9,842 bases of DNA from Chloroflexia bacterium (GTDB taxonomy: Bacteria > Chloroflexota > Chloroflexia > QHBQ01 > JADMIH01). Made by a program: the position numbers and the translations under genes. Below the pieces are notes generated by a model. The model saw only the letters and a program-made list of their open reading frames with translations, did no database searches and was not told the DNA's origin. This document shows, in pieces, positions 1-6,970 of the stretch (its first letter is position 1; each line of letters begins with the position of its first letter). Location: contig JAICKM010000206.1 in the NCBI GenBank assembly GCA_025927935.1, forward strand, positions 1 to 9,842, given 5' to 3'.

Positions 1-950
1 AGCGCCAGCCCGGCCAGCGCCGGGATCGCCTGGTAGGTCGCGCCGCCGTTATCCTCGGCCTGGGCCGCCTGGTAGCGCAACGCGCCGCTCGCGTTTTGCA
101 GGTGGACCAGGAAATCGAGCGGGCCGGCCCCGCCCTGCTGCCACGCCGCCGGGTCCTCGCCCACGGCGATCAGCCCCATGACGACCATGCCGGTCGAGTT
201 GCTGTCGCTGGCGGCGTCCGGCCCCTTCTGGTAGGCGAACCCGCCGTCGCTGTTCTGCTGCCCATGCAGGTAGGTCAGCGCCTTGGGCACCACCGGGTCG
301 CTCTTGGCCCCGGCGGCGGCCAGCGCCTGCAAGACCAGCCCGGTGGTGTTGGTGTCGGCGCTGCCCGGCCCCTTGGAGCCGTCGAACGCCCAGCCGCCCT
401 CGCTGCCCTGCCCCAGGCGCAGCCAGTCCAGCGCCTGCGCGCCCAGCGGCCGGCCCAGGTCGGTCAAGGCCAGGATGGACAGCGCGTGCCCGGTGACATC
501 CTTACCGTACTGGCCGGTCGCGGCGTCATAGCCGCCGGTGATTACCTGCTCCAGGTCGACGCCGCCAACCTGATGCATATCGGCGGTCGCACCCGTGGCC
601 GCGTCGAAAGCCAGGATCAGCTTAGCCGCCGCGCCCGGCGTCTTGGCATAGCCGGCAGCCTGGGCGGTCAGGTAATCGAGCGCGCGCTTGGTGCCGGCGC
701 TGTTCGGGTTGCTGTGCCCCGCCGCCACCAGCGCGATCACCGCGTCGGCGCTGGAGCCGACCCCGAAGCCGGGATACGAGCCGCTGGCCTGTTGCTGCCC
801 GGCCACCCAGCCCGCCGCCTGTTGGACGGCGTTATCATAGGCGCCCGCCGCGCGGGCCACCGGCGCCGCCGGGACCACGGCGGCCAGCAGCGCCGCCATC
901 CCCAGGACCAGGGCCGCCCAGCGCGGCCCCCGGTATGTGTTGCGATTCAT
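1..950 (-). CDS. Secreted alpha/alpha-toroid (prenyltransferase/squalene-cyclase repeat) protein, putative cobalamin binder, partial
   Basis: The start codon is at 950 and the frame stays open for 316 codons to the window edge, so the C-terminus is missing. GGGAGGAG at 955-963 is a strong Shine-Dalgarno just upstream. Residues 1-35 are a signal peptide: basic MNRNTYRGPR, a hydrophobic core near 11-30, and cleavage probably after VARA (about 34) or close by. The mature part has repeated helical units near 46-78, 174-214, 225-264 and 278-314, with the pattern LxxLxxQQNSDGGFAY, SDSNSTGMVVMGL and AxG. This is the QxxDGGF pattern of squalene-cyclase/prenyltransferase toroids. The DxDD motif of a class II cyclase is not seen. 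In animals the same fold forms the alpha domain of intrinsic factor and transcobalamin, and bacterial relatives often end in a DUF4430 domain. With a cobalamin riboswitch directly upstream, the inferred job is extracellular B12 capture or delivery. The fold is fairly sure; the ligand is inferred from regulation only. Confidence 0.85.
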   Translation of the reverse strand, partial: MNRNTYRGPRWAALVLGMAALLAAVVPAAPVARAAGAYDNAVQQAAGWVAGQQQASGSYPGFGVGSSADAVIALVAAGHSNPNSAGTKRALDYLTAQAAGYAKTPGAAAKLILAFDAATGATADMHQVGGVDLEQVITGGYDAATGQYGKDVTGHALSILALTDLGRPLGAQALDWLRLGQGSEGGWAFDGSKGPGSADTNTTGLVLQALAAAGAKSDPVVPKALTYLHGQQNSDGGFAYQKGPDAASDSNSTGMVVMGLIAVGEDPAAWQQGGAGPLDFLVHLQNASGALRYQAAQAEDNGGATYQAIPALAGLA

Positions 951-988
951 GTGTACTCCTCCCATACGATACGATCCGTTCGGACTAT

Positions 989-1062
989 ATCACTCTGAGC
1001 GGAGCGAAGCGTCTCGTCTTTTAGGCTACCAGACGGGGATTCTTCGCTCTGCTCAGAATGAC
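989..1062. repeat. Dispersed palindromic repeat (copy A) in the leader of the B12-regulated gene
   Basis: Two 15-base arms, 995-1009 (CTGAGCGGAGCGAAG) and 1042-1056 (its reverse complement with one change), flank a centre of about 32 bases. The outer parts (atcactctgag / ctcagaatgac) also match. The same core, TCTGAGCGNAGCGAAG, recurs near 5563-5673, and a looser relative lies at 3998-4102, so this is a dispersed intergenic family. Here it sits between the riboswitch terminator and the ribosome binding site and would be transcribed. Confidence 0.75.
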
Positions 1063-1086
1063 AAGACGCTGAGGCGGTAAGACAAC

Positions 1087-1114
1087 AAAAAACCCTCTTC
1101 ACCAGGAAGAGGGT
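1087..1114 (-). terminator. Intrinsic terminator, expression platform of the B12 riboswitch
   Basis: On the minus strand ACCCTCTTC, loop CTGGT and GAAGAGGGT form a perfect 9-bp hairpin whose 3' arm runs directly into a T tract (TTTTT, then G, then TT). It lies about 80 bases after the aptamer and about 140 bases before the start codon of the secreted protein, where a riboswitch terminator is expected. Confidence 0.92.
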
Positions 1115-1194
1115 CCGATTCGATAGGATACGACCGGCCGCGGGGCGGCCAGGCTCCCACCCCCTTTCGCGCGAAGGATGTGGAGCAACCACAG

Positions 1195-1315
1195 TGGTGG
1201 GTATCCTGGCTCGCAGCCCCGTCTCGATCAGGCTGCTTACAGTTGCGGCACAGCGCCGGTCTCACACCGGCTTCCCCCAAAGCTGCCCTACGCATCCGGG
1301 CGTAGGGCGCCACCA
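1195..1315 (-). promoter_or_regulatory. Cobalamin (B12) riboswitch aptamer
   Basis: Read on the minus strand, the segment contains the conserved cobalamin-aptamer blocks in order. A closing P1 helix is formed by GGTGG (1314-1310) with CCACC (1200-1196). A perfect 8-bp hairpin has arms 1307-1300 and 1293-1286. GGGGGAAGCCGGTG with GAGACCGGC follows, then the core GCTGTGCCGCAACTGTAA, a GCAGCC/GGCTGC helix, and the 3' box GCCAGGATACC (1210-1200). It lies between a near-consensus promoter and an intrinsic terminator, so it most likely works by transcription attenuation, with B12 turning expression off as is usual for the family. The peripheral region after the core is short. I do not assign a subclass (adenosyl- or methyl/hydroxo-cobalamin). 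Confidence 0.95.
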
Positions 1316-1348
1316 TGTTGCATGATGCGATTGTAAACGAGCCTACTC

Positions 1349-1378
1349 AGTATAGCACCAGGCCGCGCCGCCTGTCAA
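1349..1378 (-). promoter_or_regulatory. Sigma-70 promoter of the B12-regulated unit
   Basis: On the minus strand TTGACA (1378-1373) and TATACT (1354-1349) are separated by 18 bases, close to consensus. Transcription would start near 1342, about 27 bases before the cobalamin aptamer, which fits a riboswitch-controlled leader. Confidence 0.85.
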
Positions 1379-1737: not shown

Positions 1738-3360
1738 ATGGCTACAGTAGTTGGTTTGTTCGACAACAGTACGGAGGCGCAGCAGGCTATTGAGCAACTG
1801 CGCGCGGCGGGTGTCCCGTCGGAGCAGATCTCGCTGGCGATGCGCGACAAGAGCGAAGCGCGCGCCGTGGCCGAGGAGAGCGAAGTCGGCACCGGCGTTG
1901 CCACCGGGGCGGTCGGCGGTGGAATTCTGGGCGGCCTGGCCGGCCTGCTGGTCGGCATCGGCGCCCTGGCGATTCCGGGCATCGGCCCGCTCGTGGCCGC
2001 CGGCCCCCTGGCGGCGACTCTGCTGGGCGCCGGTATCGGCGCGGCTACCGGCGGTCTGATCGGCGCTCTGGTGGGCGCGGGCGTGCCGGAAGAAGAGGCC
2101 CAGTTGTATAGCGCGGGCGTCGAGCGCGGTGGCGTGCTGGTCAGCGTGCAAGCAGACCCGGATCAGGAAGCGCAGGTCCGCGACATCCTCAACAGCAGCG
2201 GCATGCGTGATGTGCACGCCGATGCCCAGACCTGGAACGAGAATCCCGATTATCGCTACGGCCAGCGCACGGACGAGTCCGTGGCGCCGGAAGCCGTCGG
2301 CGGGGCCGGGGGCGCGGTGGCCGGGGGCCTGATCGGCGCCGCTGTCGGCGGTCCTGTCGGCGCGGCGGCGGGCGCGGCCATTGGCGGCGCTGCCGGCGCC
2401 GGCGCGGGCCATGAAGCCGCGGAGCCGGATACGCATCCGGGCGGCTCAGAAGTAGGCGGGGCGGCGGGCGCCGTCACCGGCGGGGTCATCGGCTCGGTCG
2501 CCGGGCCGGTCGGCACCGTCGCGGGTGCGGCCATCGGCGGCGCGGTCGGCGGCGCGGCGGGCGAAGGCGCCCAGGACACGGCGTCCGATACGACCAGTGG
2601 CCCTGGCTATACCACGTCGGATGTGACCACCGATACAACGCCGGGCTATACCGGCGCGGGTGCGGCGCCCACCTATACCGACGCCACGACAGTCAACCGC
2701 GATCCCTATATGACGCAACCCATCGACACGGCTGCGGCCGCCGGCACAAGCGGCACCTATGATACGAGCGGCACGAGCAGCACCACCTACGAGGCGACCG
2801 GCAGCGGCGATACATTGCAGTCGGGTGGCATGAGCGGCAGCAATGCCGGCGCCGGCACCGGCTACGTGGCCGGCCAGTCCACCACAACGGACTACAATAC
2901 CAGCGGCACAACCGGTAATTATGGCACGACCGGCGCAGCCTATGATACGACCCGGACGGATACCGGCGATACGGTCGCCCCGGAGGCGGCCGGTGGCGCC
3001 GGCGGCGCGCTGGCCGGTGGCGTGATCGGCGGCGTGATCGGCGGGCCTATCGGCGCGGCGGCGGGTGCGGCCATCGGCGGCGCGGCCGGCGCCGGCGCGG
3101 GCCATCTGGGCAGCGAGCCGACGACCAATCCCGGCGGCTCGGAAGTCGGCGGCGCGGCGGGCGCCGTGACCGGCGCGGCCATCGGCTCGGTGGCCGGCCC
3201 GGTCGGCACCGTGGCGGGCGCTGTAATCGGCGGGGCCGCGGGCGGCGCGGCCGGTGAAGGCGCCCAGGACGCGGTCGAGGATACGGAAGCCGCAGACAAT
3301 ACCAGCGGTTATGTCGATCGCAGTGGCTATGTTGATCGAGGCAATTCCGAAACCCACTAA
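1738..3360 (+). CDS. General stress protein (YflT/GSP17M-like N-domain) with duplicated glycine-zipper modules
   Basis: AAGGAGG at 1726-1732, five bases before the ATG, fixes the start. The 540-residue protein opens with MATVVGLFDNSTEAQQAIEQL (1-21), the typical beginning of the GSP17M/YflT domain. That domain spans about 1-165 and holds a hydrophobic Gly/Ala insert at about 56-115 followed by the returning strand GGVLVSVQA (131-139). Two glycine-rich modules follow, 182-281 and 413-512, each with GxxxG-type zippers and the motif NPGGSEVGGAAGAVTG or a close variant. A Ser/Thr/Gly/Tyr-rich linker (282-411) separates them. The tail repeats SGYVDR twice. Family members are usually much shorter, so the extension is unusual. 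Glycine zippers can pack in membranes or self-assemble, but the role in stress is not known from sequence. No signal peptide is evident. A strong terminator follows, so the gene is probably monocistronic. Confidence 0.88.
   Translation: MATVVGLFDNSTEAQQAIEQLRAAGVPSEQISLAMRDKSEARAVAEESEVGTGVATGAVGGGILGGLAGLLVGIGALAIPGIGPLVAAGPLAATLLGAGIGAATGGLIGALVGAGVPEEEAQLYSAGVERGGVLVSVQADPDQEAQVRDILNSSGMRDVHADAQTWNENPDYRYGQRTDESVAPEAVGGAGGAVAGGLIGAAVGGPVGAAAGAAIGGAAGAGAGHEAAEPDTHPGGSEVGGAAGAVTGGVIGSVAGPVGTVAGAAIGGAVGGAAGEGAQDTASDTTSGPGYTTSDVTTDTTPGYTGAGAAPTYTDATTVNRDPYMTQPIDTAAAAGTSGTYDTSGTSSTTYEATGSGDTLQSGGMSGSNAGAGTGYVAGQSTTTDYNTSGTTGNYGTTGAAYDTTRTDTGDTVAPEAAGGAGGALAGGVIGGVIGGPIGAAAGAAIGGAAGAGAGHLGSEPTTNPGGSEVGGAAGAVTGAAIGSVAGPVGTVAGAVIGGAAGGAAGEGAQDAVEDTEAADNTSGYVDRSGYVDRGNSETH
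2281..2580 (+). repeat. Glycine-zipper module, copy 1 (coding repeat)
   Basis: This encodes residues 182-281, beginning VAPEAVGGAGG and ending GEGAQDT. It aligns without gaps to the second copy, with 17 differences in 100 residues. The module is itself two similar halves, each starting VGGAxGA and rich in IGGA steps, so the protein carries four half-modules. Confidence 0.85.
2974..3273 (+). repeat. Glycine-zipper module, copy 2 (coding repeat)
   Basis: This encodes residues 413-512, beginning VAPEAAGGAGG and ending GEGAQDA, offset 693 bases from copy 1. Most differences from copy 1 are small hydrophobic swaps (Val/Ile/Leu/Ala/Gly). The variable patch is the short hydrophilic turn after GAGAGH, EAAEPDTH in copy 1 and LGSEPTTN in copy 2. 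Confidence 0.85.
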
Positions 3361-3997: not shown

Positions 3998-4102
3998 GTC
4001 ACTCTGAGAGTATTGCTTCCAGTCTCGCGTATCCTGATGAACGCAGTGAAGCATCTTGTCTTGTAGCCCAACGACGAGATGCTTCACTGCGTTCAGGGTG
4101 AC
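3998..4102. repeat. Palindromic dispersed repeat (copy B) between convergent genes
   Basis: A perfect 18-bp inverted repeat (4039-4056 with 4077-4094, core GAACGCAGTGAAGCATCT) surrounds a 20-base centre. The edges, gtcactctgag and cagggtgac, resemble the ends of the repeat at 989-1062. It lies between the stop codons of two convergent genes and could form a long hairpin in either transcript, perhaps stabilising or terminating both. No T tract follows, so terminator activity is only a guess. Confidence 0.72.
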
Positions 4103-5271: not shown

Positions 5272-5751
5272 TTGTATACTGATTTAGGCCCATCTGTACT
5301 AGTGATAGTGGTGACAGGCTATGGCGCATTGTGGGTTGCCCGCAAGGTAGAACGTGCGGCTCCGTTCCAGGGCTTCCTGGTAGGCCTGGTGGTCGCACTC
5401 ATGTCTTTCGTGCTAGATCTGGGCTTTAGTGGGAAGATTGATCCGGTGGGACTGGTACTCTACGTTCTGATGGTCGCCGCCGGCTGGCTGGGTGGCATCC
5501 TGGGTAGCCGAAGATGCGCCGCTTTCATGGCGAAGAGTCTCGGCGCAGTGGGGGACAAGACGGAGATTCTGAGCGCAGCGAAGAATGACGGATCCCCCAA
5601 GCCTTGTCACTCTAAGCGCAGCGAAGAGTCTCGTCCTCCCGGCTTGTCTAGGGAGCGCAGCGAAGAGGCTCGTCGTGCGAGGGGCAACGCTAATCAGGGG
5701 ATCTCGGCGGTGCGGTCGCCGGGCACCACCAGCATCGAACCGCTGTCATAG
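5272..5751 (+). pseudogene. Truncated small membrane protein joined to the transposase remnant
   Basis: The frame continues in phase directly after the transposase stop; the only start there is a TTG without a ribosome binding site. Residues 1-80 look like a real integral membrane protein, with hydrophobic segments near 7-23, 33-52 and 59-78 and a final GWLGGILGSRR before a basic end. From about residue 85 the sequence becomes low-quality and is encoded by three copies of a dispersed repeat, reaching a TAG at 5749-5751 inside the 3' end of the opposite-strand gene. The likely history is loss of the 5' end to the IS630 insertion or deletion and loss of the natural stop to repeat insertion. No family is assigned. 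Expression is doubtful. Confidence 0.55.
5563..5673. repeat. Dispersed repeat cluster (copies C1-C3)
   Basis: Three direct copies of the core AGCGCAGCGAAGA lie in a row: within 5563-5591 (gattctgagcgcagcgaagaatgac), 5608-5633 (cactctaagcgcagcgaagagtctcg) and about 5647-5672. The core matches the arms of the repeat at 989-1062. The cluster separates the broken membrane-protein gene from the end of the opposite-strand hypothetical gene. Confidence 0.75.
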
Positions 5752-6941: not shown

Positions 6942-6970
6942 TTGACATCCACGAGCGCGTTCCCTATAAT
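6942..6970 (+). promoter_or_regulatory. Perfect-consensus sigma-70 promoter of the yceD-rpmF-fab operon
   Basis: TTGACA (6942-6947), a 17-base spacer and TATAAT (6965-6970) match the consensus at every position. Transcription would start near 6977, about 40 bases before the first gene, as suits a highly expressed ribosomal and lipid synthesis operon. Confidence 0.95.

What the first reader, a model, noticed from the sequence alone, without database searches (positions are those of the whole stretch)
1..1378. B12 riboswitch controlling a secreted intrinsic-factor-like toroid protein
Seen: promoter, cobalamin aptamer, intrinsic terminator, ribosome binding site, and a signal-peptide protein made of squalene-cyclase-type repeats, all in order on one strand. 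Known: animal intrinsic factor and transcobalamin use the same alpha/alpha barrel to hold B12, and bacterial relatives carry DUF4430. Inferred: this is a bacterial extracytoplasmic B12-capture protein, a candidate counterpart of the animal carriers, probably working with a B12 transporter encoded beyond the left edge.
Basis: partly seen in the sequence, partly recalled or inferred. Interest (0 to 1): 0.78.

Follow-up and report, generated by a model that had tools for sequence, protein, structure and literature searches.

The report
Riboswitch-controlled bacterial vitamin B12 capture protein
A bacterial gene switched by a vitamin B12 sensor encodes what looks like one half of a two-part surface clamp resembling the human stomach's B12 carrier split into two proteins; bacterial relatives of that carrier were predicted in 2007, but this two-gene, B12-switched form seems not to have been described.

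The parts
1349..1378 (-). sigma-70-type promoter, TTGACA-18 nt-TATACT
   Evidence: 11 of 12 consensus matches
1179..1328 (-). cobalamin riboswitch aptamer (RF00174)
   Evidence: 60.9 bits, E 2e-13, complete model
1090..1116 (-). intrinsic terminator, the likely expression platform of the riboswitch
   Evidence: 11-pair stem, loop of 5, T-run; refolded alone
956..963 (-). ribosome-binding site GGGAGGAG
   Evidence: read from the sequence by eye
3..950 (-). toroid protein gene, 316 codons present, C-terminus beyond the window edge
   Evidence: SQHop_cyclase_C E 2e-9; 77 relatives P0001-P0077; AlphaFold2 of P0001, pLDDT 90.3
846..950 (-). signal peptide (by eye: charged start, hydrophobic run, ARA-A site)
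   Evidence: read from the translation; no signal-peptide program was run
342..356 (-). conserved DTNTT motif of the toroid
   Evidence: D in 46 of 46 rows, N in 44 of 46
192..206 (-). conserved DSNST motif, aligned with the DxDD region of squalene-hopene cyclase
   Evidence: alignment printed; S and T in 46 of 46 rows, N in 43 of 46

Best explanation
The gene encodes the toroid (alpha) half of a split, surface-anchored B12-binding pair. When intracellular cobalamin is low, the leader RNA lets transcription pass the terminator. The toroid protein is exported and held at the cell surface by an LPxTG-like tail and membrane helix. A second exported protein with the transcobalamin/intrinsic-factor beta-grasp fold, encoded nearby in relatives, closes on the same B12 molecule. 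B12 is then passed to an ECF transporter (EcfT, EcfA, S component). Shown here: riboswitch and toroid in the window; anchor-like tail, lack of the cyclase motif, predicted fold of the partner and gene association in relatives. Inferred: B12 binding, pairing of the two proteins, hand-over to the transporter, and presence of the partner genes in this window's own genome.
Confidence: 0.75

Rival explanations
1. The toroid and its partner bind another corrinoid-related ligand (cobinamide, pseudo-B12 or a lower-ligand compound), or the ECF module is a cobalt importer, rather than the system being for cobalamin itself.
For: EcfT is found by the CbiQ cobalt-transport model. CobC-like and CobS genes, which act late in making cobalamin from cobinamide (general knowledge), sit in 7 loci each, so cobinamide salvage fits well. 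Cobalamin riboswitches also precede a cobalt ECF importer in C. difficile (PMC11477304, passages).
Against: The partner's fold matches cobalamin-carrier beta domains above other beta-grasp folds, and a protein pair of this kind is not expected for free cobalt. CbiM and CbiN were not searched for, so this is not excluded.
Confidence: 0.15
2. The toroid is an exported enzyme of the terpene-cyclase or glycan-acting toroid class that happens to be B12-regulated.
For: Best sequence and structure matches of the toroid are squalene-hopene cyclases and other toroid enzymes.
Against: The region aligned with the cyclase DxDD motif reads DxNST (N in 43 of 46, S and T in 46 of 46). The protein is exported, and relatives sit beside ECF and cobalamin-salvage genes. 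Glycan-acting residues were not examined.
Confidence: 0.05
3. The protein is a docking or regulatory part of the transporter, or a receptor for another B12-carrying protein, without itself holding B12.
For: Fold similarity does not show ligand binding; no binding residues were mapped here.
Against: In transcobalamin both domains sandwich one B12 (Burroughs et al. 2007, passages), and here both halves occur together (40 of 42 loci).
Confidence: 0.05

Closest known systems
Animal intrinsic factor, transcobalamin and haptocorrin
   Different: Here the two domains are separate proteins with anchor-like tails; identity in the beta domain is 7-15 percent; a riboswitch stands before the gene; an ECF transporter is encoded nearby in relatives.
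Bacterial transcobalamin-like SLBB domains (DUF4430 type) with toroids, Burroughs et al. 2007
   Same: Toroid and beta-grasp association, signal peptides, Gram-positive anchors, operons with CbiO/CbiQ, predicted B12 scavenging (PMC1796856, passages).
   Different: The passages seen (12 of 20 places) describe toroid-SLBB fusions, for example in Desulfotomaculum and Bacillus, and operons with a second SLBB protein. Here the toroid stands alone, the partner escapes Pfam's DUF4430 model, the loci are from Chloroflexota, and riboswitch control is seen; the word riboswitch does not occur in that paper's main text.
NCBIfam SCO2321 family (NF053823) and SCO2322 family (NF040672)
   Same: P0001 matches NF053823 at E 3.6e-25 and the partner P0104 matches NF040672 at E 0.002, hinting at the same gene pair in Streptomyces (the SCO numbering as Streptomyces coelicolor, and as neighbours, is recalled).
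   Different: Both are below the curated cut-offs (88.7 of 300; 18.4 of 85), the names give no function, and weak NF053823 matches also ring in 3 of 14 control genomes.
ECF-CbrT cobalamin transporter of Lactobacillus delbrueckii
   Same: Cobalamin importer made of EcfT, EcfA, EcfA' and an S component (PMC5997447, passages).
   Different: No toroid or beta-grasp capture protein appears in the passages seen; the S components here were not compared with CbrT.
Bacteroides BtuG/BtuH/BtuJ surface B12-binding lipoproteins
   Same: Extracytoplasmic B12 capture from riboswitch-regulated loci (PMC13398666, passages; PMC8941943, passage and abstract start).
   Different: Different proteins (for example the beta-jelly roll of DUF4465), working with BtuB and BtuCD/BtuF.

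Membership tests
Cobalamin riboswitch (RF00174) | covariance-model match above the curated score over the full aptamer | tested here: met
   60.9 bits against 31.5, model 1-189
Cobalamin riboswitch (RF00174) | ligand binding and control of expression | not testable with these tools
   needs in-line probing or a reporter
Animal cobalamin carriers (intrinsic factor, transcobalamin, haptocorrin) | alpha/alpha toroid domain | tested here: met
Animal cobalamin carriers (intrinsic factor, transcobalamin, haptocorrin) | beta-grasp domain on the same chain | tested here: not met
   P0001-P0003 end in a linker, LPxTG-like motif and hydrophobic stretch; in relatives the domain is on a second protein
Animal cobalamin carriers (intrinsic factor, transcobalamin, haptocorrin) | sequence match to a Pfam model of these carriers or to solved carriers | tested here: not met
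   no such model among the Pfam matches of the toroid; no carrier among the 60 shown of 76 matched PDB sequences
Animal cobalamin carriers (intrinsic factor, transcobalamin, haptocorrin) | cobalamin binding | not testable with these tools
   no binding assay; binding residues were not mapped
Bacterial toroid plus transcobalamin-like SLBB B12-scavenging loci (Burroughs 2007) | toroid and transcobalamin-like beta-grasp domain encoded together with CbiO/CbiQ-type genes | tested here: met
   in relatives: second protein 40 of 42, EcfT (CbiQ type) 35 of 42, EcfA 22 of 42; predicted fold of the partner. Not seen in the window itself.
Bacterial toroid plus transcobalamin-like SLBB B12-scavenging loci (Burroughs 2007) | Pfam DUF4430 (PF14478) match in the partner | tested here: not met
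   0 of 19 partner proteins; 0 of 6 genomes, while 2 of 14 control genomes ring
Squalene-hopene/terpene cyclases | DxDD acid motif | tested here: not met
   DxDD in 2 of 46 aligned proteins, P0069 and P0071, the two most distant rows (31 percent identity); absent in P0001 and close relatives
LPxTG-type surface proteins | LPxTG-like motif, hydrophobic helix, positive tail | tested here: met
   pattern [LMIVA]Px[TS]G in the tail of 29 of 46 relatives, MPTTG in P0001-P0004; helix 336-360
LPxTG-type surface proteins | a sortase in the same genome | not tested
   no search was made

The most novel reading that the evidence does not exclude
A split intrinsic factor: two separately anchored surface proteins, toroid and beta-grasp, that come together only when B12 lies between them, so the vitamin is the glue that assembles the receptor, which then docks on an ECF transporter. 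Such loci in Chloroflexota, and perhaps the unnamed SCO2321/SCO2322 pair of Streptomyces, would be living two-gene counterparts of the fused animal carriers.
Probability: 0.5. Interest if true: 0.75.

Novelty: new variant of a known kind. Interest (0 to 1): 0.56.

Why it matters
How bacteria outside the TonB/BtuB world capture scarce B12 outside the cell is little known (PMC8941943 says as much of Firmicutes, passage). These loci give a compact, testable system: a riboswitch, two capture proteins of predicted fold and an importer. If true it would also provide a two-gene counterpart of the animal carriers, bearing on the 2007 proposal that animals acquired theirs from bacteria, and would suggest a function for protein families that databases leave unnamed.

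Tried and rejected

Choice of loci. Riboswitch counts: 43 loci = the 30 issued (L003, L005-L033), L002, and 12 that I picked from later rows (L042-L053); other rows were not taken. L003, L006 and L013 were scanned at gathering and at E 0.5; L046 and L051, which showed none, at gathering only. Gene-order counts: 42 loci = L001, L002, L034-L073. An earlier count gave 39 second proteins, 34 EcfT and 9 S components because it measured from ORF starts and so lost L051; one search measures from the matched stretches. 11 of the second-protein queries come from these same loci, with the two partners of L001 and L002 only, matches in the same 40. L034 ends in the toroid; L046, a second toroid gene of G036, has neither partner nor riboswitch.

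Full report
Observation. The minus strand carries a TTGACA-18-TATACT promoter (1378-1349), a full-length RF00174 cobalamin aptamer (1328-1179, 60.9 bits, E 2e-13), a terminator hairpin with T-run (1116-1090), GGGAGGAG and an ATG at 950 (by eye). A reading frame then runs off the left edge. The 316 residues present match SQHop_cyclase_C at E 2e-9. Starts of relatives P0002 and P0003 (92 and 89 percent identical) agree with ATG 950.

Relatives and gene order. No genome is held for the window. L001 and L002 are MAGs named Chloroflexia and Thermomicrobiales; most named hits are Chloroflexota, one (P0032) is called Candidatus Gracilibacteria. Among 400 genomes of L001's phylum 101 have a match at E 1e-3, weak cyclase-like ones included. 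In 42 loci a second protein, exported by eye, is encoded downstream on the same strand in 40, EcfT in 35, a two-domain EcfA in 22, an S component in 10, a CobC-like phosphatase in 7 and CobS in 7. Examples were identified by Pfam and NCBIfam: CbiQ for EcfT; CobS above its cut-off (TIGR00317, 152 of 110); CobC just below (TIGR03162, 148.5 of 162.9); S components by PF12822, two of five below the cut-off. The two loci with downstream sequence whose toroids are most like the window's (L054 and L056, about 50 percent) have the second gene 2 and 73 bases after the toroid. L054 then has a CobC-like gene; neither shows EcfT or EcfA. In the Chloroflexus-like group typified by L058 the order is toroid, second protein, CobC-like, CobS, EcfT (the likeness to Chloroflexus is my guess from context). 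L034 has no downstream sequence and L046, a second toroid gene of G036, has no partner.

Riboswitches. Of 43 toroid loci scanned, 32 have a cobalamin-clan riboswitch at or above the gathering score just upstream on the same strand. Seven more have matches below it (E 8e-6 to 7e-4). Four show none: L006 and L013 even at E 0.5, L046 and L051 at gathering only. In the 12 loci L042-L053 (213,851 bases) the 10 cobalamin-clan matches all lie at the toroid gene, an internal control. One of the four without is L006, the same gene as in L054.

Mechanism. Best reading: low cobalamin permits read-through of the terminator; toroid and beta-grasp proteins are exported and anchored; together they hold one B12; the ECF importer takes it in. 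That cobalamin riboswitches act as off switches is stated in PMC11477304 (passage). That an isolated beta domain can bind B12 is suggested by the title of PDB entry 5np4 (title only). From memory, separated intrinsic-factor fragments also reassemble around cobalamin; that was not looked up. Binding, pairing and transport are inferences.

What is known. Burroughs et al. 2007 (passages) predicted bacterial toroid plus beta-grasp B12 scavengers with CbiO/CbiQ genes and a bacterial origin of the animal carriers. What I did not find in print, by searches, is the two-gene Chloroflexota form with a stand-alone toroid, its partner outside the DUF4430 model, and its riboswitch control. NCBIfam's SCO2321 and SCO2322 families (matches below cut-off) hint at the same pair in Streptomyces; weak NF053823 matches also occur in 3 of 14 control genomes, so the hint is soft. 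Hence: new variant of a known kind.

Limits. The window itself shows only the riboswitch and about five sixths of the toroid gene. Partner and transporter are known from relatives at about 50 percent identity or less. CbiC carriage (10 of 42 genomes behind the loci, 38 of the other 358) does not show that carriers are auxotrophs.

Noticed in passing
window 991-1060, 5565-5629, and weakly 4079-4100: Copies of a short palindromic repeat (about 22-base arms, CATTCTGAGC-type) lie in the toroid gene's leader between terminator and start codon and elsewhere; it looks like a dispersed hairpin element.
   Followed up: partly
window 6942-6970 (+): A perfect 12 of 12 sigma-70-type promoter (TTGACA-17-TATAAT) just before the YceD, L32, FabH-like and acyltransferase gene run.
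   Followed up: no
window 1738-3360 (+): Divergent neighbour gene: a YflT-type stress domain followed by glycine-zipper segments in a 540-residue protein; no evident B12 link.
   Followed up: no
P0069 and P0071: Proteins with an ECF S-component-like stretch (PF12822 below its cut-off) before a toroid in one chain; these two keep a DVDD motif.
   Followed up: partly
rows with open frames of about 700-860 aa (for example G130, G138, G354): Double-toroid proteins: two toroid matches in one frame; one of them (G138, L045) has a cobalamin riboswitch and the second protein.
   Followed up: partly
L058 9067-11650; also L059, L061-L063, L067: A CobC-like phosphatase and CobS lie between the second protein and EcfT, suggesting cobinamide salvage in the same unit.
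   Followed up: partly
L044 6371-6451 (-): A ZMP/ZTP riboswitch (RF01750, 53.6 bits) in the same stretch as a toroid operon.
   Followed up: no
L044, L047, L048, L049: A different gene order: toroid, EcfT, EcfA, then the beta-grasp protein and the S component.
   Followed up: partly
P0089, P0090, P0092, P0093, P0095, P0099, P0125, P0126: A newer Pfam accession, PF28005, is attached to these 8 of 49 partner relatives; it is absent from the library here, so its name was not seen.
   Followed up: partly
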